Source of the DNA: Bacteroidales bacterium
GTDB taxonomy: Bacteria; Bacteroidota; Bacteroidia; Bacteroidales; Muribaculaceae
DNA: 64,000 nt
Reading direction: 5' to 3'
NCBI GenBank assembly: GCA_014800535.1
Contig: JAAVFW010000011.1
Location: forward strand, 43,808-107,807
Made by a program: the position numbers and the translations under genes. Shown in pieces: positions 13,867-53,219 of this stretch. Every line of letters begins with the position of its first letter. Position 1 is the first letter of the stretch. Below the pieces are notes generated by a model that saw only the letters and a program-made list of their open reading frames with translations, was not told the origin of the DNA and ran no database searches.

Positions 13867-15381
13867 ATGGAAAGTAAGGAATTTAAGAAGGTTAATCTGC
13901 CTGAGATCTCGATGTCTCGTGTATCTCATCAAAGTATAGTACCTGGTCACATACCTTTGGTTGCAATGGGAAATATAGAGGATGAAGCAGGTGAAATTTC
14001 ATTAAAACATTTCTCTTTAATTCAAGAATGTGGATTAAATGTATTTATTCGTTCATTGCATGATCATAATATTATCAGAAAATATCTTGAAAGTGCAGAG
14101 AAAACAGGTGTAAAGGTAATTGCTGGATATGGCTTCCGCGCACCTAATATTTCAAAATTTTCATATAATCCACCTACTGAGGAAGCTATGCTAACACTGC
14201 AAGAGATAGTTCCCCAATATCCTGGATGGGTTTCTAAAATAATGACATGGAAAATTCAGCTTGAAAAGTTGTTTGAGTATTGCGAAAATCGAGTATTGGC
14301 AGGAAACCCCAATCTTTTAGATAATTTTGCAGGTTTTTTGCTTCAGGATGAACCTAAAGCTTCTCAAATGTGGCGTCTTGTATATCAGGGAAATGAATTC
14401 GAAAAAAAGTTTATTTCGCATGGAATTGGTCAGATGCCAATTTTTACTTCTACTCTTTTACCAGATTTAACGACGGGAGTTAGTTCTAAAAATGCGATCA
14501 AAGCTTGTGATCTATACTCTGGAGGATTGAATACTGCTATAAATTATCTTACAGGATACTCTAAAATAAATAATTATAATGATTACGTAAATCTTTATGA
14601 TTCAATGTTTAATCCTCCATTTATTGCATTTGATGCTTATCCTTTTCGAGAAGATAAAAATCAACAGAAATCATCTATGCGATCATTTTTTAATAGCTTA
14701 ATTTATTTTCAAAGTAGAAAGGCTGAAAATGGTAAAGATTTCTGGTCAACTGTTTTAACGCAAGAAATTACAGATAAATTAGGGAATCATTACTCAGCTC
14801 CAACTATAGGACGTATAAGATTTGGAGCATTTATATCATTATTATATGGTGCAACAGGATTGCAATTTTTTCGTTTTTTTCAGGAAGAAGATAATAATGA
14901 TGAATCGTATAATGCAGCTCCGGTTAATTCCTATGGAATTAAGACCCAGACATTTAATTATTTGAAAACGGTTGTTCAACAAATAAAAAAGATTGAGGGA
15001 ATAATATTATCGACTAAAATTGCTCTTACTGCTGTTACTAAGGCGCCTCCGTTAGCTGATCTAACAGAGATTCCTGGTATTAAGAAAATGGGAAAGTATA
15101 ATTTTGGTGTAATTAAGAAGATTTCAGAGGAAACGTCTGGTTTTATTCTTTCGCACATGTATAATAGTAAATACAATTATATTTTTGTAGTAAGTATGAA
15201 TGAAGTGAAGGTACAGACGAGTCGCTTTGAATTTCAGCAGATAGAAGATGTAGAAATTTATGAAAATATTGGTAGTATATTAGATGAAGGTTGGTGCCCT
15301 GTTTCTGATCAAAGTATTAAGAATGGTCGATATATATCTTTTGCACCGTCTGATATGGTTATATTCAGATACCCTCGTTAA
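13867..15381 (+). CDS. glycosidase-like TIM-barrel protein without signal peptide (cassette 1)
   Basis: This 504-residue protein belongs to no family I can name with certainty. It is clearly paralogous to the protein at 49805-51460. The shared landmarks, in order, are PGHIPLVAMGN with ECGLNVF (residues 26-60), GVKVIAGYG (81-89), FAGFLLQDEP (154-163), FDAYPF (255-260), DFWSTVLT (291-298) and IRFGAFISLLYGATGL (317-332). This order resembles clan-A glycoside hydrolases, with E162 of DEP as a possible acid/base. A glutamate at the usual nucleophile strand is not obvious. There is no signal peptide. The gene is visibly more A+T-rich than its neighbours, which suggests transfer. It is followed 23 nt later by an exported LRR lipoprotein gene and probably forms a pair with it. 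Confidence 0.6.
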   Translation: MESKEFKKVNLPEISMSRVSHQSIVPGHIPLVAMGNIEDEAGEISLKHFSLIQECGLNVFIRSLHDHNIIRKYLESAEKTGVKVIAGYGFRAPNISKFSYNPPTEEAMLTLQEIVPQYPGWVSKIMTWKIQLEKLFEYCENRVLAGNPNLLDNFAGFLLQDEPKASQMWRLVYQGNEFEKKFISHGIGQMPIFTSTLLPDLTTGVSSKNAIKACDLYSGGLNTAINYLTGYSKINNYNDYVNLYDSMFNPPFIAFDAYPFREDKNQQKSSMRSFFNSLIYFQSRKAENGKDFWSTVLTQEITDKLGNHYSAPTIGRIRFGAFISLLYGATGLQFFRFFQEEDNNDESYNAAPVNSYGIKTQTFNYLKTVVQQIKKIEGIILSTKIALTAVTKAPPLADLTEIPGIKKMGKYNFGVIKKISEETSGFILSHMYNSKYNYIFVVSMNEVKVQTSRFEFQQIEDVEIYENIGSILDEGWCPVSDQSIKNGRYISFAPSDMVIFRYPR

Positions 15382-15404
15382 TGAAAATATTATAATTTTG
15401 AATA

Positions 15405-16325
15405 ATGAAGATTGAGAAGTTTTGGAGTTGGATAATAGTGGCAACCATTTTTGGTATGTGTTTGCAAGGTTGTTCATCTGATGAACCGGGTAAAATAACT
15501 TATGGTAAGAGATTGCCTGTTGGAACTACCGTTGTACCTGAAAATTATTATGAAGGACAATATGCACCAATGCCACTTCCTTCTACTCTAAAAAAAATTG
15601 AGAAGGAAAGTTTCTATGCGTGTAAGAATGAATATATTGTTGTTCCTGAAGGTGTGACGGAAATCTATGAAAATGCTTTTGCAAGAGGTTCAGACGGTCA
15701 TAGTTTCGGAGGCGTGGAAGGAGAATATAATGTTGGCAATCTTGCTACCTTGTTACTTCCTTCTACTGTGAAATATATTGGAGAAAAAGCCTATAGCGGT
15801 TATTTTCATGGAGGTATGTCTACTGCGATTTACGGCACGCCGAAGGTCATAATAGAGGCTGTTACTCCTCCGACAGGAGTCTTTAACGGTTTTGGCTCGG
15901 TCGGTGAGGTGGAATCAAGGGTTAAGGGTTCGCCGTTCTTGTATGTTCCGGAGGAGGGATATGACCTGTATATACAGGCAAGAGATAAATATTTGAATTT
16001 ATCTAATATGCATGACGAGGAATCAATAGAAATCAGGAAAGGATTAGTGAGGGTGATTCCATTTAAGAAGCTATCAATTAATATCACTGAGGAAGAGGAT
16101 GGAAATAACAGAAAATTTGTAGTAATCCCTAATAGTGACAATAAGGCAGAAATCGTGTCTGTAAGTTGGGAAACTACAGATTCAAGTATCGCAACAGTCA
16201 GTCCGAGCGGAACATTGGAGGTTAAGAAAAGTGACAAAACGGTAAATATTGTCTGCATGCCTCTGATTATGCTTGAGGATGGGAAAAAGTTGAAGTTCTA
16301 CCGCTTTAAGGAGATTACCACCTGA
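15405..16325 (+). CDS. surface lipoprotein with BspA-type leucine-rich repeats and an Ig-like (Big2) domain (cassette 1)
   Basis: This 306-residue protein has a type II signal peptide ending in a lipobox (MCLQGC, cysteine at residue 23). The residues after it, CSSDEP, resemble the Bacteroidota lipoprotein export signal (acidic residues right after the cysteine), so display on the outer surface is likely. Two LRR_5-type segments follow (LPSTLKKIEKESFYAC, VPEGVTEIYENAFARG, LLPSTVKYIGEKAYSG). The C-terminal part has a Big2-like strand pattern (SVSWETTDSSIATVSPSGTL). It lies directly after the glycosidase-like gene and is A+T-rich like it. The second cassette carries the same modules in a longer protein. 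Such repeats usually bind host or glycan ligands; the ligand here is unknown. Confidence 0.75.
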   Translation: MKIEKFWSWIIVATIFGMCLQGCSSDEPGKITYGKRLPVGTTVVPENYYEGQYAPMPLPSTLKKIEKESFYACKNEYIVVPEGVTEIYENAFARGSDGHSFGGVEGEYNVGNLATLLLPSTVKYIGEKAYSGYFHGGMSTAIYGTPKVIIEAVTPPTGVFNGFGSVGEVESRVKGSPFLYVPEEGYDLYIQARDKYLNLSNMHDEESIEIRKGLVRVIPFKKLSINITEEEDGNNRKFVVIPNSDNKAEIVSVSWETTDSSIATVSPSGTLEVKKSDKTVNIVCMPLIMLEDGKKLKFYRFKEITT

Positions 16326-47599: not shown

Positions 47600-48994
47600 A
47601 TGAAAAAACGATTACTTACATTGACTGTTGTGGCAGCAGCTTTCGCAGTCAATATCGCAGCTGAGGTCGGAGGAATTGATGCCGACATGCTCGGCAGATT
47701 GAAGGCTTCATTTGTTAATTCTCCTCAGGACAAGGCGCTTCGCAACGCCATGAACGGGATTGAGATTGATAAACTTGCAGCTAATGCTGATGCTCCAAAC
47801 TCCTTTTCAACCGATTTTTCAGATCGAGTTGAAAGTAAAGGAATCACAAATCAAAAGAATTCAGGACGTTGTTGGCTTTTTACCGGTCAGAATGTGCTCC
47901 GCTCACAAATGATGAAAAAACATGACCTGCCTGAACTTTATCTCTCACAAAACTATAACTTCTTCTTCGACCAGCTCGAAAAAGCAAACCTGTTCCTTCA
48001 GGCAATAATCAACACTGCCGACCGTGAGGAATCAGACCGCACTGTCGACTGGCTTTTCCAGCACCCTCTGAGCGATGGCGGACAATACACCGGTGTTTCG
48101 GAAAACTTTATGAAATATGGAGTTATTCCGGCCGAGGTTATGCGCGAGACAAACTCAAGCAACAACACGACACGCATCAACAGTCTTATTTCTCTTCGAC
48201 TGCGCGAAGACGGACTGAAACTTCGTAGAATGAAAGCAGAGGGGATGTCGCAGGAAGCACTCATGAAGGAGAAAGAGGAGATGTTGAAAACTGTCTATCG
48301 AATGCTTGCCTTGACAATGGGAGAGCCGCCGACAGAATTTACATGGACACGTAAAAACAGCAAGGGAGAGGTGGTCAGCACCAAGACCTATACACCGCAA
48401 TCGTTCTATAAGGAATTTGCAGGTCAAGACCTTAAGAACGATTACGTCATGCTGATGAATGACCCCTCCCGAGAGTTTTACAAACTTTATGAGATAGACC
48501 TTGACCGTCATGCTTTCGATGCCGGCAACTGGAAGTTCATCAATCTTCCGGTGGAGGATATAAAGAAAATGGCTATCAGCTCGATTAAGGATGGAAAGAT
48601 GATGTATTTCTCATGCGACGTCGGTAAATTCCTTGACCGTGAAAGAGGAGTTCTGGATGTAGATAACTACGACTATGAATCACTGTTTGGCACAACCTTC
48701 GGAATGGATAAAGCAGAGCGAATCCGCACACATGCCAGTGCGTCATCACATGCCATGACCCTCGTAGCGGTTGATATTGACAAGGATGGCAAGCCGACAA
48801 AATGGATGGTTGAAAACAGCTGGGGACCCGGAGCTAATGACGGACATCTTATCATGACCGACAAATGGTTTGACGAATATATGTTCCGCCTTGTGGTTGA
48901 TAAAAAATATGTTCCGGCAGAGATTCTGAAGATATTGAATCAGACTCCGACATTACTCCCCGCATGGGATCCCTTATACCTCGACAAGGACTAA
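47600..48994 (+). CDS. pepC: exported C1 family cysteine peptidase (PepC/bleomycin hydrolase type)
   Basis: The start is the ATG of MKKRLLTLTVVAAAFAVNIAA, which gives a clean signal peptide, so the enzyme is periplasmic or membrane-attached rather than cytoplasmic like most PepC. The 464-residue protein has the catalytic Cys in SGRCWLFTGQNVL, His in SSHAMTLVAVD and Asn in VENSWGPGANDGH. It is expected to be an aminopeptidase that trims peptides. It stands alone and ends at a hairpin terminator. Confidence 0.92.
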   Translation: MKKRLLTLTVVAAAFAVNIAAEVGGIDADMLGRLKASFVNSPQDKALRNAMNGIEIDKLAANADAPNSFSTDFSDRVESKGITNQKNSGRCWLFTGQNVLRSQMMKKHDLPELYLSQNYNFFFDQLEKANLFLQAIINTADREESDRTVDWLFQHPLSDGGQYTGVSENFMKYGVIPAEVMRETNSSNNTTRINSLISLRLREDGLKLRRMKAEGMSQEALMKEKEEMLKTVYRMLALTMGEPPTEFTWTRKNSKGEVVSTKTYTPQSFYKEFAGQDLKNDYVMLMNDPSREFYKLYEIDLDRHAFDAGNWKFINLPVEDIKKMAISSIKDGKMMYFSCDVGKFLDRERGVLDVDNYDYESLFGTTFGMDKAERIRTHASASSHAMTLVAVDIDKDGKPTKWMVENSWGPGANDGHLIMTDKWFDEYMFRLVVDKKYVPAEILKILNQTPTLLPAWDPLYLDKD

Positions 48995-49000
48995 ATAAGT

Positions 49001-49051
49001 GAATCTTGACAAGCGCAGAAAAAAGCGAATCTTGACAAACGCAGAAAAAGC
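49001..49051 (+). repeat. two-unit direct repeat after the C1 peptidase gene
   Basis: Two copies of a 25-26-nt unit beginning GAATCTTGACAA and ending CGCAGAAAAA(A)GC lie head to tail (49001-49026, 49027-49051). They were probably produced by a local duplication. Confidence 0.7.
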
Positions 49052-49067
49052 GAAATTACAAAATAAA

Positions 49068-49103
49068 CAGGTCGATGCAGATTCTTTCCGCATCGATCTG
49101 TTT
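49068..49103 (+). terminator. terminator of the C1 peptidase gene
   Basis: CAGGTCGATGC (49068-49078) pairs with GCATCGATCTG (49090-49100; one G-U) and is followed by TTT. Confidence 0.7.
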
Positions 49104-49197
49104 CATTATAATATCGTTAACATTATTTCTGACTTTTGAAGAAATATCTCATTCGTTACCGCCACAAAAAATGTTAAGGCCTCATTTTGAAGCATAG

Positions 49198-49401
49198 CTT
49201 AATTGCGAAGCAATCGCGAGAGGATTTGCACCTGTAATGGGCTATATTCAATGGCGAAACTTTCAATCAATCATAGAAAAAGCTAAAGACTCGGCTGATA
49301 ATGCAGGTGAGAAAATCTACGACCATTTTGCTAACGTCAGCAAAATGGTACCTCTATTTACGGATGAGTTTTGGCTGGCACATTTACAAAGTCAAGAATA
49401 A
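49198..49401 (+). pseudogene. remnant of a DinD-like gene (N-terminal BRO/DinD fragment)
   Basis: The frame reads ARGFAPVMGYIQWRNFQSII, then EKAKDSADNAGEKIYDHFAN and VSKMV, before a stop at 49399-49401. It resembles the N-terminal conserved block of DNA-damage-inducible protein D (pattern ARDL..VLGY..WRNF...IEKAK...NSG....DHF.....M). A TAG stop lies just upstream in frame and the rest of a roughly 280-residue protein is absent, so the gene is broken. DinD-like genes are often found in mobile regions, so this marks a site of past insertion next to the second cassette. Confidence 0.65.
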
Positions 49402-49745
49402 TGCCAATTTTGACTCTCTCAAATCACAATTTTACAGCACATCTCGCGTTTTATCTTCCTGCTTGGGCTGGAAATCCTAAAAATAACAATCTTATTAAAT
49501 CGGTTTCTGTAAAGAACAACGATTGAGGGGTGTTCATATACCCATGAGGAATAATCCCTTACTTACATCGTATTTCTGAAATACTGTACCGCCAATCTAC
49601 TTACACTATTTTAGATGTCTTATGATTTGTAAATGCTAATAATAAATTCTCAATTTAATTTTTCTACTTTAGTTTTAGATTTATTAGTCAGAAATATTTC
49701 AAATTGTTAAATAATGTTAAAAATAATATATATGTATAGATTGTA
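49402..49745. other. non-coding A+T-rich gap with no recognised gene
   Basis: After the dinD remnant the sequence is A+T-rich. One 41-codon frame (49401-49526) contains the peptide FTAHLAFYLPAWAGNP, which I could not assign; it may be random. Nothing else interpretable was seen before the cassette promoter. Confidence 0.5.
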
Positions 49746-49777
49746 TTTGGAGATTATAATTGCAGTATATAAATTTG
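49746..49777 (+). promoter_or_regulatory. predicted promoter of cassette 2
   Basis: TTTG at 49746-49749, a 20-nt spacer and TAAATTTG at 49770-49777 match the Bacteroidota consensus; the start would be near 49784, 20 nt before the ATG. Cassette 1 lacks so clear a promoter. Confidence 0.75.
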
Positions 49778-49804
49778 TAAAATAATATTAAATATATTTA
49801 GGTT

Positions 49805-51460
49805 ATGGAAAATATTAAAAAAGAAAACGAATCTAAGATTAACTTGCCGATCATGGTTGTTCCTTTTACTCCACAATATGTAAATCCGACTCCAGGGGAA
49901 CTTCCTTTAATGGCAATTGGAACACCATCCGGAAAGCAGGAATTCGATGCTGAGACATTGGCTAAAATGAAGAATTGCGGTATGAATATTGCGGAGAATA
50001 TATTGTCAAATAACGCTGATGTCATAACGCAGTCTATATTAAATGGAGATGCCGTAGGTGTTAAGATAATGGTTAGGCTTTCTATAAATAAGATCTCTGT
50101 ATGTTCTGGAACATGGGATAACGTTAGTCTTAAAGAAAATAATTTGCCTTTAGTATCTCCCTCAGATACTTCGTGGAGTTCTTTTTATTTAAAGTGGAAT
50201 AATGTTGTAACCAAATTCAAGAATCATTCGGCTGTAGCGGGATGGATGATTGTTGATGAGCCGACTGTATCTGATTTTTGGGTTGTAGCAGAATGTACCA
50301 AAAGAATTTATGAAAACGTAATGAACGGAGATTACTCGACTGCTAAAAAAATGTTGGTTTTTAACAATCTGCTTAAAAATAATATCGATTTAGTTACCGG
50401 TTCACCTTCTGCCGATGAGAAAAATAAGAATACAAGATTATTTACTCTTTCCGGTGGGTTCAGCACTGAAAAGGTAGTTTCGTGTTATACGGGAGTATCT
50501 CAGATAAAATCTTATAGTGATTATCTGAATTTATATTGTCGTTTGAACGGTCCTTCTGTCTTATCGGTCGATGCGTATCCGTTTTCAGGTTTGAAATATC
50601 ACTATGAAAATTCAGGTATCGCTGTGGATATTTCTGAAACCAATAAAAAACGGGATGAAAATCTACAGTCATATTATCTTACTCTTATGTCTTTTAGAGA
50701 TCAAAATATTCCATTTTGGTCGACTGTGCAGACTACAGTAGAATCTACTTTGGAATCCATAGAATCTCTGACTCAATGGGTTGATAAGTATCCAAAACCC
50801 TCATTAGCAACCATCCGTTATCAGGCGTTTACCGCACTCTCCTTTGGAGCAGTTGGATTGTCATTTTGGCGTTTCAGTGATGATAAGGCGAGGGAAAATA
50901 TTAAATGGACAGAATCTCCTCTAAATGCGAGTGGTATAAATACTCCGACCTTCGATTATCTGAAAACTGTGGTAGATCAGATTAAGGAATTTCAACATAT
51001 CTTCCTAAATGCAACAAGTGTTAATCCTGCCCTTACAGAGGTTAAAGAGTTGTCTGAGAGTGTTGCTGGAGGGGATAAAAGTGAAGAAAATTATATCGTC
51101 CAGCCTCAGAAAACGCCGGGGATAAATATTATTAAACTTAAGGATGGCGCACCAACAACCACTTTTAGTTTTATCAAATCAATAAAGTGTAGCATTTTTT
51201 TAGATGAAACTGAGGAAGTAGATGGTGTTACAGTTGTAAAGAAAACAGATTCTCCTTATGGAGTGTTGCTGTCGCAGATACACACAGATAAATATGAATA
51301 TCTCATTGTGGTTAATCTGAACCCAGAGGAGGATTGTTTTTTGGAAATGTCATTTACGACTTTTGTAAATGATGAGATGAAACCATCTCCAGGTGGAAGT
51401 AATCGGTATATTGGTATGATAGAACCCGGAGATTGGCATATTTTCAGTCGAAAAAAATAA
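49805..51460 (+). CDS. glycosidase-like TIM-barrel protein without signal peptide (cassette 2)
   Basis: This 551-residue paralogue of the protein at 13867-15381 shares landmarks in the same order: PGELPLMAIG with NCGMNI (residues 30-62), GVKIMVRLS (85-93), VAGWMIVDEP (144-153), SVDAYPF (254-260), PFWSTVQT (303-310) and IRYQAFTALSFGAVGL (337-352). The pattern resembles clan-A glycoside hydrolases; E152 is a candidate acid/base. The nucleophile is not obvious. It has an extra segment at about 415-485 (with EEVDGVTVVKK) not seen in the first paralogue. There is no signal peptide. The gene is A+T-rich. An LRR protein gene follows 88 nt later. Sequence identity between the two is low overall, so the duplication is old or they arrived separately. 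Confidence 0.6.
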   Translation: MENIKKENESKINLPIMVVPFTPQYVNPTPGELPLMAIGTPSGKQEFDAETLAKMKNCGMNIAENILSNNADVITQSILNGDAVGVKIMVRLSINKISVCSGTWDNVSLKENNLPLVSPSDTSWSSFYLKWNNVVTKFKNHSAVAGWMIVDEPTVSDFWVVAECTKRIYENVMNGDYSTAKKMLVFNNLLKNNIDLVTGSPSADEKNKNTRLFTLSGGFSTEKVVSCYTGVSQIKSYSDYLNLYCRLNGPSVLSVDAYPFSGLKYHYENSGIAVDISETNKKRDENLQSYYLTLMSFRDQNIPFWSTVQTTVESTLESIESLTQWVDKYPKPSLATIRYQAFTALSFGAVGLSFWRFSDDKARENIKWTESPLNASGINTPTFDYLKTVVDQIKEFQHIFLNATSVNPALTEVKELSESVAGGDKSEENYIVQPQKTPGINIIKLKDGAPTTTFSFIKSIKCSIFLDETEEVDGVTVVKKTDSPYGVLLSQIHTDKYEYLIVVNLNPEEDCFLEMSFTTFVNDEMKPSPGGSNRYIGMIEPGDWHIFSRKK

Positions 51461-51521: not shown

Positions 51522-51548
51522 TTATCATATAGAAATAGAAATTAGGTG

Positions 51549-53219
51549 ATGACGAAAAATGTGAAAATAATGGTACAGAAGTTAAGCATGATTTTACTGA
51601 TGGTTCTTTTGGGAGGTGTTTCTGCATATTCCTTTAGAACGTATCCTCAAGTGGGAGATACCCTGGTGTTTAATAATGATCAGTTTAGGGGGAGTTTAAA
51701 AGTTCTGTCGTTAAATCCATGCGAAGTCGCAGTGTTGAAAGATGATAATAAAAGAATTGAGCCGGATAGATTTGATAAAATCCCTGAAGATGTGATATAT
51801 AGTTATGGAGTGTCTGCTGATTTTGCTTCAGGCTATAACAAGTTTATCAAATTCAAGATTGTGTCACTTGGGTTGCCGGAAGATAAAGATAATCAAAACA
51901 TATCTTATATAAATTATATATATCATGAACATAATAGGTATTCGACGGTAACGATTCCTTCAGGTGTTAGATTTATCTCAAATTATTTTTTCTCAGGTGT
52001 CTTGTGTGAAAGGTTTGAGATGGATGAAAATGACTATTTTGACACCACTGACGGCTGTTTGATTGAAAAATCAACGTCGACACTGATAAAATTTCCTGCG
52101 CTCGCGCCGATGATGTCATATAAATTGCCGGAGTCGATAAAGCAGATAGCCCCATTCAGTTTTTATGGCTCTTTTGTCGAGGTGAGTTTGCATGATGAGA
52201 TTACGGAGATTCCGGATTTTTCATTCTGTTTTTATTCGTCCAAAAGTTTCAGTTTCCCTAAGCATGTAAAAAAGATAGGGACGTATGCTTTCGCTTTTTC
52301 AAATTTGGGAGCAATCAGAATTCCCGATGGAGTTGAGCAGATCAATGAGGGGGCATTTGCGGAAGGTTTTTCCGATATGGTTAAATATCAAGACGACCTT
52401 TATTACGGAGCAATACGGTTTGCAGTAATACCGGCTCTGAATCATCCTGTCAGAGATACTTGTTTTGATATCAAGGTTTATGTAAGGTTTGAGGAAATTT
52501 ATAGTAATACCGTGCATTATATTTACCCTTATTACTGTTGGGATATACCAGACTATGATAAAGAGGCAGTGTTTAATTATGTCTTTTTATCAGAAAGTCA
52601 GGAGATAGAGAAGTCTGCGTTTCCCGATAATCCTGATATGGAAATTTACGGCAGAAATCAGAGAGTTTATAGAAAGCACTACGATAACTTGTATGACGGA
52701 TGGTGTAATGTTTATGTTCCGGCCGGCAGCGAAAGTTATTATTCGCAATGTTTGAAGGATAATCTACTTCCGCAGGAATCGAAGATAATGACTTTTACCG
52801 GCGATTATTTCTTCTTAGACAGTTATCTTGGTGCAGGAATGTGGGTAAACGGCAGACGCAAGATGTCATACGCATTGGTTTATGGAGGCGACATAAAGCC
52901 TGTATCGTTTGAATGGAGCGTTGACGACCCCGATATTCTATCAGTTGATAAAGAAGGGATTATAAGCGTGCTTAAGGAGGGTGACACAACGGTATGGCTG
53001 ACTGTTGAAGACAGCACAGGCAAAATATGGAAGAGCAGTAAGTCGATACATGTAGGAGAGGAGCAGACAGGGATAATTGCTCCGGCTGACGAAACTCATG
53101 ATGCCTTCATGAAAGATTCGGGTGTTTATACCTTACAGGGAATCAGGGTAGGGGATAATATCGATGAACTTCCGGCCGGACTATATATCTGTGGCGGAAA
53201 GAAGATTCTGAAAAGATAG
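51549..53219 (+). CDS. exported BspA-type leucine-rich-repeat protein with Big2 domain and C-terminal sorting-like tail (cassette 2)
   Basis: This 556-residue protein has a signal peptide (MVQKLSMILLMVLLGGVSAYS) and no lipobox. LRR_5-type segments follow (VTIPSGVRFISNYFFSGV, LPESIKQIAPFSFYGS, FPKHVKKIGTYAFAFS, IPDGVEQINEGAFAEG). A Big2-like domain comes next (FEWSVDDPDILSVDKEGII), then a tail reading VYTLQGIRVGDNIDELPAG and ending in GGKKILKR. That tail resembles the C-terminal sorting domains of Bacteroidota secretion (Por/T9SS-like), so the protein is probably secreted and surface-held by a different route from the lipoprotein of cassette 1. The start is placed at 51549; 51570 is an alternative. 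A ligand is unknown. Confidence 0.75.
   Translation: MTKNVKIMVQKLSMILLMVLLGGVSAYSFRTYPQVGDTLVFNNDQFRGSLKVLSLNPCEVAVLKDDNKRIEPDRFDKIPEDVIYSYGVSADFASGYNKFIKFKIVSLGLPEDKDNQNISYINYIYHEHNRYSTVTIPSGVRFISNYFFSGVLCERFEMDENDYFDTTDGCLIEKSTSTLIKFPALAPMMSYKLPESIKQIAPFSFYGSFVEVSLHDEITEIPDFSFCFYSSKSFSFPKHVKKIGTYAFAFSNLGAIRIPDGVEQINEGAFAEGFSDMVKYQDDLYYGAIRFAVIPALNHPVRDTCFDIKVYVRFEEIYSNTVHYIYPYYCWDIPDYDKEAVFNYVFLSESQEIEKSAFPDNPDMEIYGRNQRVYRKHYDNLYDGWCNVYVPAGSESYYSQCLKDNLLPQESKIMTFTGDYFFLDSYLGAGMWVNGRRKMSYALVYGGDIKPVSFEWSVDDPDILSVDKEGIISVLKEGDTTVWLTVEDSTGKIWKSSKSIHVGEEQTGIIAPADETHDAFMKDSGVYTLQGIRVGDNIDELPAGLYICGGKKILKR

What the first reader, a model, noticed from the sequence alone, without database searches (positions are those of the whole stretch)
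13867..16325. A two-gene cassette, present twice, pairs a TIM-barrel protein with an LRR/Ig-like surface protein
The glycosidase-like gene at 13867 and the LRR lipoprotein gene at 15405 recur as paralogues in the same order at 49805 and 51549. Both pairs have the same gene order and strand, and at least eight matching landmarks run through the TIM-barrel proteins. Neither pair lies in a known polysaccharide-utilisation cluster with SusC/SusD. Inference: the pair is a functional unit, for example a surface ligand-binding protein with a partner enzyme or toxin-like protein. I know of no described system with this composition.
Basis: partly seen in the sequence, partly recalled or inferred. Interest (0 to 1): 0.75.

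Follow-up and report, generated by a model that had tools for sequence, protein, structure and literature searches.

The report
Leaderless barrel enzyme–LRR surface protein cassette
Some bacteria carry several copies of a small gene set that pairs a sugar-enzyme-like protein, which unlike many of its relatives has no export signal, with an exported repeat protein; the pairing is real and recurrent, but what it does is not known.

Summary
The window's genome has seven paralogues of the barrel protein; six are directly followed, on the same strand, by an exported surface-type protein, five of these with LRR_5. Of full-length homologues in the fetched stretches, 30 of 43 leaderless ones have an LRR neighbour, against 1 of 39 exported ones. 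Leaderless proteins do not form one clade. Exported relatives keep a D-E-N-D-Y signature (38 of 39 complete). Leaderless ones split into an intact kind (29 of 43) and a degenerate kind (14); all 13 leaderless tandems pair the two kinds, 8 of them beside an LRR gene. The degenerate copy seems to be under purifying selection. The window's genome has the two-gene form, without degenerate copy. Best mechanism, unproven: a cytoplasmic enzyme acting on, or escorting, its co-encoded LRR protein before export, as GtfA/GtfB do for serine-rich adhesins.

The parts
13867..15381 (+). leaderless barrel protein 1 (504 aa), intact kind (D-E-T-D-Y; N replaced by T)
15405..16325 (+). partner 1 (306 aa): lipoprotein-type signal (LQGC, by eye), LRR_5, Big_2 below cut-off, no C-terminal tail
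49705..49777 (+). upstream pattern TGTTAAWW (twice, 10 bp apart) then TANNTTTG; a like pattern lies upstream of the barrels in L009, L011 and L013; weak evidence (17 matches against 8 in the control, genome-wide)
49805..51460 (+). leaderless barrel protein 2 (551 aa), intact kind (D-E-N-D-Y)
51546..53219 (+). partner 2 (557 aa; ATG at 51549): signal peptide, LRR_5, Big_2 just under cut-off, C-terminal tail GVYTLQGIRVG...GLYICGGKKILKR

Best explanation
Shown: a recurrent cassette of a leaderless clan-A-like barrel with intact conserved residues and an exported LRR_5 surface-type protein, joined in several relatives by a second, degenerate leaderless barrel. Inferred: the barrels act in the cytoplasm on the co-encoded LRR protein before it is exported. 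The intact barrel would add, remove or trim a sugar (or otherwise modify it), and the degenerate barrel would be the substrate-holding or regulatory subunit. The LRR protein then leaves by Sec and, in relatives with the type IX machinery, may be sorted by its C-terminal tail. In the window's genome the intact barrel would do both jobs. Steps not shown: enzymatic activity, cytoplasmic location, any contact between barrel and LRR protein.
For: Leaderless barrels: LRR neighbour 30 of 43 against 1 of 39 exported (Fisher p 5e-11; p 9e-9 to 1e-10 at most other thresholds, 8e-8 at 2.5). Leaderless state not one clade (AU p 2.7e-12; at least 6 changes forced by starred branches). All 13 leaderless tandems = one intact + one degenerate; no degenerate member in the 3 tandem pairs of exported fused proteins, though one member there is cut off. 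Degenerate copies dN/dS 0.16-0.21 (2 of 4 pairs gave a value) against 0.14-0.20 for intact ones (3 of 5). Barrel and LRR similarity correlate. 18 of 43 leaderless barrels have an LRR gene directly downstream on the same strand; 4 overlap by 4 bases at an ATG start, a fifth (L011) only if its first GTG is the start, and one by 1 base. Analogue: GtfA transfers the sugar and GtfB interacts with the adhesin as a chaperone (PMC6973325, passages seen).
Against: Nine other LRR_5 genes of the genome have no barrel neighbour, 5 of them with the same signal peptide + LRR + tail build, so LRR export does not need a barrel. G016's four full-length leaderless barrels and G101's one have no LRR neighbour; 5 of 13 tandems have none either (one of these lies at a contig edge). 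The relatives are hydrolase-like, not transferases. The independent-pairs test on the tree was not significant (6 pairs, median p 0.25). Mirror-tree p within single genomes was 0.10 and 0.08. The window's genome has no degenerate copy. No structure could be predicted.
Confidence: 0.3

Rival explanations
1. Small scavenging unit: the LRR protein binds a host or dietary glycan at the surface; the cytoplasmic barrel, a glycosidase, hydrolyses imported oligosaccharides. The degenerate copy is a binding or regulatory paralogue.
For: Profile kinship with GH42 and other clan-A glycosidases; exported relatives include modular proteins with extra regions; the D-E-N-D-Y signature is kept at 4 or 5 of 5 in 29 of 43 leaderless proteins.
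Against: No SusC or SusD in the flanking proteins scanned (an EamA-type transporter lies four genes before barrel 2); GH42 nucleophile position not Glu; overlap with the LRR gene is not needed for this.
Confidence: 0.28
2. The leaderless barrel is exported by an unknown route, or released by lysis or vesicles, and works outside together with the LRR protein.
For: The related forms without LRR link are exported (39 of 82 non-fused full-length proteins, 8 fused ones, and 12 of 12 at order level); the partner is exported.
Against: Repeated change of the leader is odd for a protein needed outside; no route identified; T6SS TssC not found in the 10 genomes tested.
Confidence: 0.12
3. Co-inherited, AT-rich surface-gene islands: barrel and LRR gene travel and are expressed together without direct cooperation.
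For: Leaderless barrels are AT-rich against neighbours (median difference -0.095 in 40, against -0.004 in 39 exported), though not in G016 and G009; partner-type LRR genes also occur without a barrel (L178).
Against: The LRR neighbour is frequent (30 of 43) and seen in 9 genomes; unit-wise similarity.
Confidence: 0.2
4. Antagonism pair: one protein is a toxin or effector, the other protects.
For: A leaderless and an exported protein in one operon resemble some effector-immunity pairs (recalled).
Against: No PADLOC hit; TssC in 4 of 111 genus genomes, none of the 10 with leaderless barrels; sizes unusual for immunity (recalled).
Confidence: 0.05

Closest known systems
GtfA/GtfB with serine-rich repeat adhesins (Gram-positive accessory Sec loci; PMC6973325, passages seen)
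   Same: Two-protein complex, one member the transferase and one interacting with the substrate as a chaperone, encoded in loci that can hold the exported surface protein
   Different: Barrels related to glycoside hydrolases rather than glycosyltransferases; LRR_5 rather than serine-rich partner; no modification shown; accessory Sec not looked for
Glycoside hydrolase family 42 (Pfam PF02449) and clan GH-A
   Same: Weak profile match in 27 of 58 members at E 0.01; the DEP Glu aligns with the Glu that I recall as the GH42 acid/base
   Different: The position of the recalled nucleophile Glu holds C, V, A or other residues; extra conserved D and Y; leaderless and LRR-linked members
BspA-type LRR surface proteins (PF13306)
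   Same: 28 of 32 partner proteins match LRR_5 (the set includes 3 tail-bearing neighbours chosen although they had no LRR label); C-terminal tails that look like T9SS type A
   Different: Linked to a leaderless barrel; only 1 of 32 matches Por_Secre_tail at E 0.01
Exported relatives of the same barrel family
   Same: Same domain; D-E-N-D-Y complete in 38 of 39
   Different: Signal peptide; mostly single genes or about 915-aa modular proteins; no LRR neighbour in 38 of 39 and in 8 of 8 fused

Membership tests
GH42 | Whole-protein Pfam score over cut-off | tested here: not met
   window barrel 1: 16.4 bits against 21; barrel 2: no match. Among the paralogues L010 passes (23.7 bits)
GH42 | Acid/base Glu at end of strand 4 (role recalled) | tested here: met
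   DEP Glu aligns with the Glu of two beta-galactosidases in the profile alignment; present in both window proteins
GH42 | Nucleophile Glu at end of strand 7 (role recalled) | tested here: not met
   aligned position holds C, V, A and others in the family
GtfA/GtfB adhesin glycosylation | Glycosyltransferases with DUF1975 (paper) | tested here: not met
   only Glyco_hydro_42 and DUF4434 matched among 58 barrel members at E 0.01
GtfA/GtfB adhesin glycosylation | Active + chaperone partner encoded with a surface protein | tested here: inconclusive
   13 of 13 leaderless tandems intact + degenerate by residues only, 8 of 13 beside an LRR gene; window genome has no degenerate copy
Polysaccharide utilisation locus | SusC/SusD pair | tested here: not met
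   none in 20 window proteins scanned, including both flanks; not every window ORF was scanned
T9SS cargo (partner) | Recognised type A sorting domain | tested here: not met
   1 of 32 partners at E 0.01; neither window partner matched; tails look alike by eye
T9SS cargo (partner) | T9SS present in the genome | tested here: inconclusive
   SprA in 9 of 11 genomes tested; not in the window's 68%-complete genome nor in G251
T6SS effector-immunity | T6SS in the same genome | tested here: not met
   TssC (PF17541) in 4 of 111 genus genomes, none of the 10 with leaderless barrels; several genomes are incomplete, G250 not tested
BspA-type LRR | LRR_5 over cut-off | tested here: met
   34.6 and 59.7 bits against 27.7

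The most novel reading that the evidence does not exclude
A cytoplasmic enzyme–pseudoenzyme pair of glycosidase-fold barrels that modifies its own co-encoded LRR surface protein before export: a Gram-negative counterpart of GtfA/GtfB built from a different fold, arisen by repeated loss of the signal peptide from an exported enzyme and multiplied into many cognate cassettes per genome.
Probability: 0.22. Interest if true: 0.85.

Novelty: new variant of a known kind. Interest (0 to 1): 0.6.

Why it matters
In one barrel family, export signal present or absent changed several times, and the leaderless members mostly sit beside an exported LRR protein, often in tandem with a conserved sister that has lost the signature residues. 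That is a testable sign of a new cytoplasmic job tied to a surface protein. If the job is modification before export, it would be a new way for such bacteria to tailor surface proteins; if not, it still marks an uncharacterised surface-gene family that Pfam and NCBIfam do not name.

Tried and rejected
Toxin or defence reading: no PADLOC match; TssC not found in the 10 leaderless genomes tested. Mobile element: no match to window barrel 2 in the plasmid or phage collections by tblastn. RNA element: no Rfam match in the window at gathering threshold. Phase variation: only short repeats near the pairs. Shared promoter pattern: upstream of 4 of 6 paired barrels, but 17 matches against 8 for the control and several before unrelated genes, so weak. 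Rosetta-stone fusion of barrel and LRR: none of the 8 fused proteins matches the local LRR model, and Pfam showed none in the 3 scanned. Insertion site: barrel 2 and its LRR gene were not found within about 1,500 bases of ThrRS in the 29 relatives whose loci were returned, of 51 genomes with a match; of those 29 only G016 has leaderless barrels, so this says little. Novelty: seven text searches listed no paper that by title or abstract start describes such a cassette; only listings were seen. One search asked about T9SS in Muribaculaceae (listing only). For GtfA/GtfB the listing and the passages were seen.

Rows dropped and choices: of 107 barrel hits in the script gene table, 90 were kept as full-length (at least 380 aa, closed, score over 150) and 17 pieces dropped from counts; two degenerate tandem members (L063_0, L063_9) are among the dropped pieces but are counted in the tandem table. 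Tandems needed the same strand, a gap under 300 bases and at least 180 aa each, so split genes (L053, L064) and a 181-aa fragment at gap 302 (L047_7) were left out, as were units in which an LRR gene lies between the barrels (L058, L068). Signal peptides were called by my own hydrophobicity rule, not a trained predictor; the threshold was set after seeing the scores, and one protein (L081_7) was moved to exported by eye; one search gives other thresholds (27 of 38 against 4 of 44 at 1.7; 31 of 55 against 0 of 27 at 2.5). The local LRR model was grown from one seed (L009_4) and missed L012's partner, which has Big_2 and a tail. Paralogues are not independent, so the Fisher p is too small. The family and order searches scored only the best 4-5 candidates per genome, so copy numbers there are lower bounds; at order level the 7 weakest genomes (E about 1e-8 to 1e-12) were not fetched.

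Full report
1. Observation. The barrel proteins are homologous (26% identity, E 3e-39). The LRR proteins share LRR_5 and sub-threshold Big_2 matches but align only over short stretches. Both pairs lie among housekeeping-type genes: phosphoglucomutase and a flavin reductase around pair 1, a C1-like peptidase and threonyl-tRNA synthetase around pair 2. No SusC/SusD was found in the 20 window proteins scanned.

2. Own genome. The genome (1.6 Mb, 68% complete) has seven barrel paralogues. Six have an exported surface-type protein directly downstream on the same strand: five with LRR_5, the sixth (L012) with Big_2 and a like tail. The seventh (L010) has an N-terminal hydrophobic export signal, follows an 809-aa exported protein, and has no such partner. 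Nine further LRR_5 genes that I fetched have no barrel next to them; five of the nine have signal peptide, repeats and tail. By chance, five of seven has p about 2e-9 with 14 LRR genes among about 1,400 assumed genes, or 3e-7 with 37.

3. Relatives. With a 58-member profile, 29 of 111 genomes of the genus, 25 of 347 drawn from the family and 21 of 393 drawn from the order have the barrel family at E 1e-8 (the draws overlap). Among 82 full-length non-fused proteins in the fetched stretches, 43 were judged leaderless and 39 exported. An LRR gene lies next to 30 of 43 leaderless and 1 of 39 exported ones (p 5e-11), and 0 of 8 fused ones. Of the 13 leaderless ones without LRR, 5 have a tail-bearing neighbour, 4 lie at an edge and 4 have neither. 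By genome, 9 of 11 with leaderless barrels have the LRR link, against 1 of 32 with exported barrels. Leaderless cassettes were seen only in the window's genus and in one genome of another genus on a 3.1-kb contig (G250), which may be contamination. The 12 further full-length exported proteins fetched at order level have the full signature and no LRR neighbour. Each ORF was taken from its first possible ATG, GTG or TTG after the preceding stop, so no upstream in-frame leader with such a start is missed.

4. Active and degenerate copies. A profile built from exported members alone shows six highly conserved polar positions, of which five (D, E, N, D, Y) were used for counting. They are complete in 38 of 39 exported and 8 of 8 fused proteins. 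Leaderless proteins fall into two groups: 29 of 43 with at least 4 of 5, and 14 with at most 3. Thirteen leaderless tandems were found and each pairs one intact with one degenerate member; one degenerate member (L063_0) is cut by the end of the stretch, and its other piece, L062_17, is degenerate too. Eight of the 13 lie beside an LRR gene. The three tandem pairs of exported fused proteins (five proteins) have no degenerate member, though one is cut off. If 13 intact and 13 degenerate proteins were paired at random, all-mixed would have p 8e-4 (shared ancestry makes it optimistic). Degenerate copies show dN/dS 0.16 and 0.21, like intact ones (0.14-0.20), with LRR partners at 0.19-0.36; synonymous sites are near saturation, and 2 of 4 degenerate, 2 of 5 intact and all 3 exported pairs gave no value. 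So the degenerate copy looks kept, not decaying. Eleven of the 14 form a supported group in the quick tree (SH-aLRT 99), with the caution that degenerate proteins have long branches.

5. History. Holding all leaderless proteins together as one clade is rejected (AU p 2.7e-12, quick tree, group named after the data were seen). On the tree the exported L010 is sister to the leaderless, LRR-linked L009 of the same genome (98). The tree is unrooted, so loss of the leader, rather than gain, is inferred from the exported forms outside the genus. The independent-pairs test of leader against LRR was not significant (six pairs). Leaderless barrel genes are AT-rich against their neighbours (median -0.095 in 40 against -0.004 in 39). 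Barrel and LRR similarity correlate over 21 cassettes (rho 0.69; within-genome permutation p 0.009 around a permuted mean of 0.63; single genomes 0.10 and 0.08). The cassette thus seems to duplicate or travel as a unit, with modest statistical weight.

6. What the barrel is. Pfam gives a sub-threshold GH42 match for window barrel 1 and none for barrel 2; the exported L010 passes the cut-off; 27 of 58 members match GH42 at E 0.01. The family profile finds beta-galactosidases (best E 4e-11), a GH158 protein and weaker GH5 and GH2 proteins in the PDB. The DEP Glu aligns with the Glu that I recall as the GH42 acid/base, but the position of the recalled nucleophile is not Glu. It is therefore clan-A-like, not filed as GH42, and its activity is unknown. 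Structure prediction could not be obtained.

7. What the partner is. Of 32 partners scanned (29 LRR-type or own-genome partners and 3 tail-bearing neighbours), 28 match LRR_5 and 5 match Big_2 at E 0.01. Most end in a tail that by eye resembles the T9SS type A signal, though only 1 of 32 is recognised. SprA of the T9SS is present in 9 of 11 genomes tested, not in the window's incomplete genome.

8. Mechanism. The link to an exported protein, the missing leader, an intact and a conserved degenerate copy, and stop-start overlaps (4 of 4 bases at an ATG start, a fifth that depends on a GTG start, 1 of 1 base, among 18 direct same-strand pairs) are best read as a cytoplasmic partner acting on the LRR protein before export, as GtfA/GtfB do for serine-rich adhesins (PMC6973325, passages). 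This is an inference at about 0.3. A glycan-scavenging enzyme, an unusual export route, and mere co-inheritance remain open.

9. Verdict.

Noticed in passing
L054:4743-6437, L058:4573-6366, L061:108-1958: Intact leaderless barrels of G038 and G006 have, by eye, cysteine-rich N-terminal extensions (14-15 Cys per whole protein), which may mean metal binding.
   Followed up: no
L099, L100, L102-L104: About 915-aa exported proteins of other genera: signal peptide, N-terminal region without Pfam match in the 3 scanned, barrel, C-terminal region, mostly a tail; three in tandem in L104.
   Followed up: partly
L137:3807-6692: Order-level 961-aa exported protein whose N-terminus looks by eye like a hexosaminidase N-domain, with the barrel in the same frame.
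   Followed up: no
L178:3584-7377 (G000:C19): Two adjacent exported proteins (GC 0.39 and 0.42) with partner-type tails, one LRR_5, without a barrel gene; the first looks by eye like the partner in L009.
   Followed up: partly
L070-L076, L083, L087, L093, L096: Many single exported barrels lie beside what look by eye like glycosyltransferase or polysaccharide-export genes.
   Followed up: no
window 48994-49805: 800-bp gap before barrel 2 with a 26-bp tandem direct repeat (48993-49044, 88% alike) and a hairpin with 14-nt arms (49322-49349, 93% complementary).
   Followed up: no
G037, L047 and L053: Barrel fragments beside or in place of intact copies, a sign of gene birth and decay in the expanded family.
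   Followed up: no
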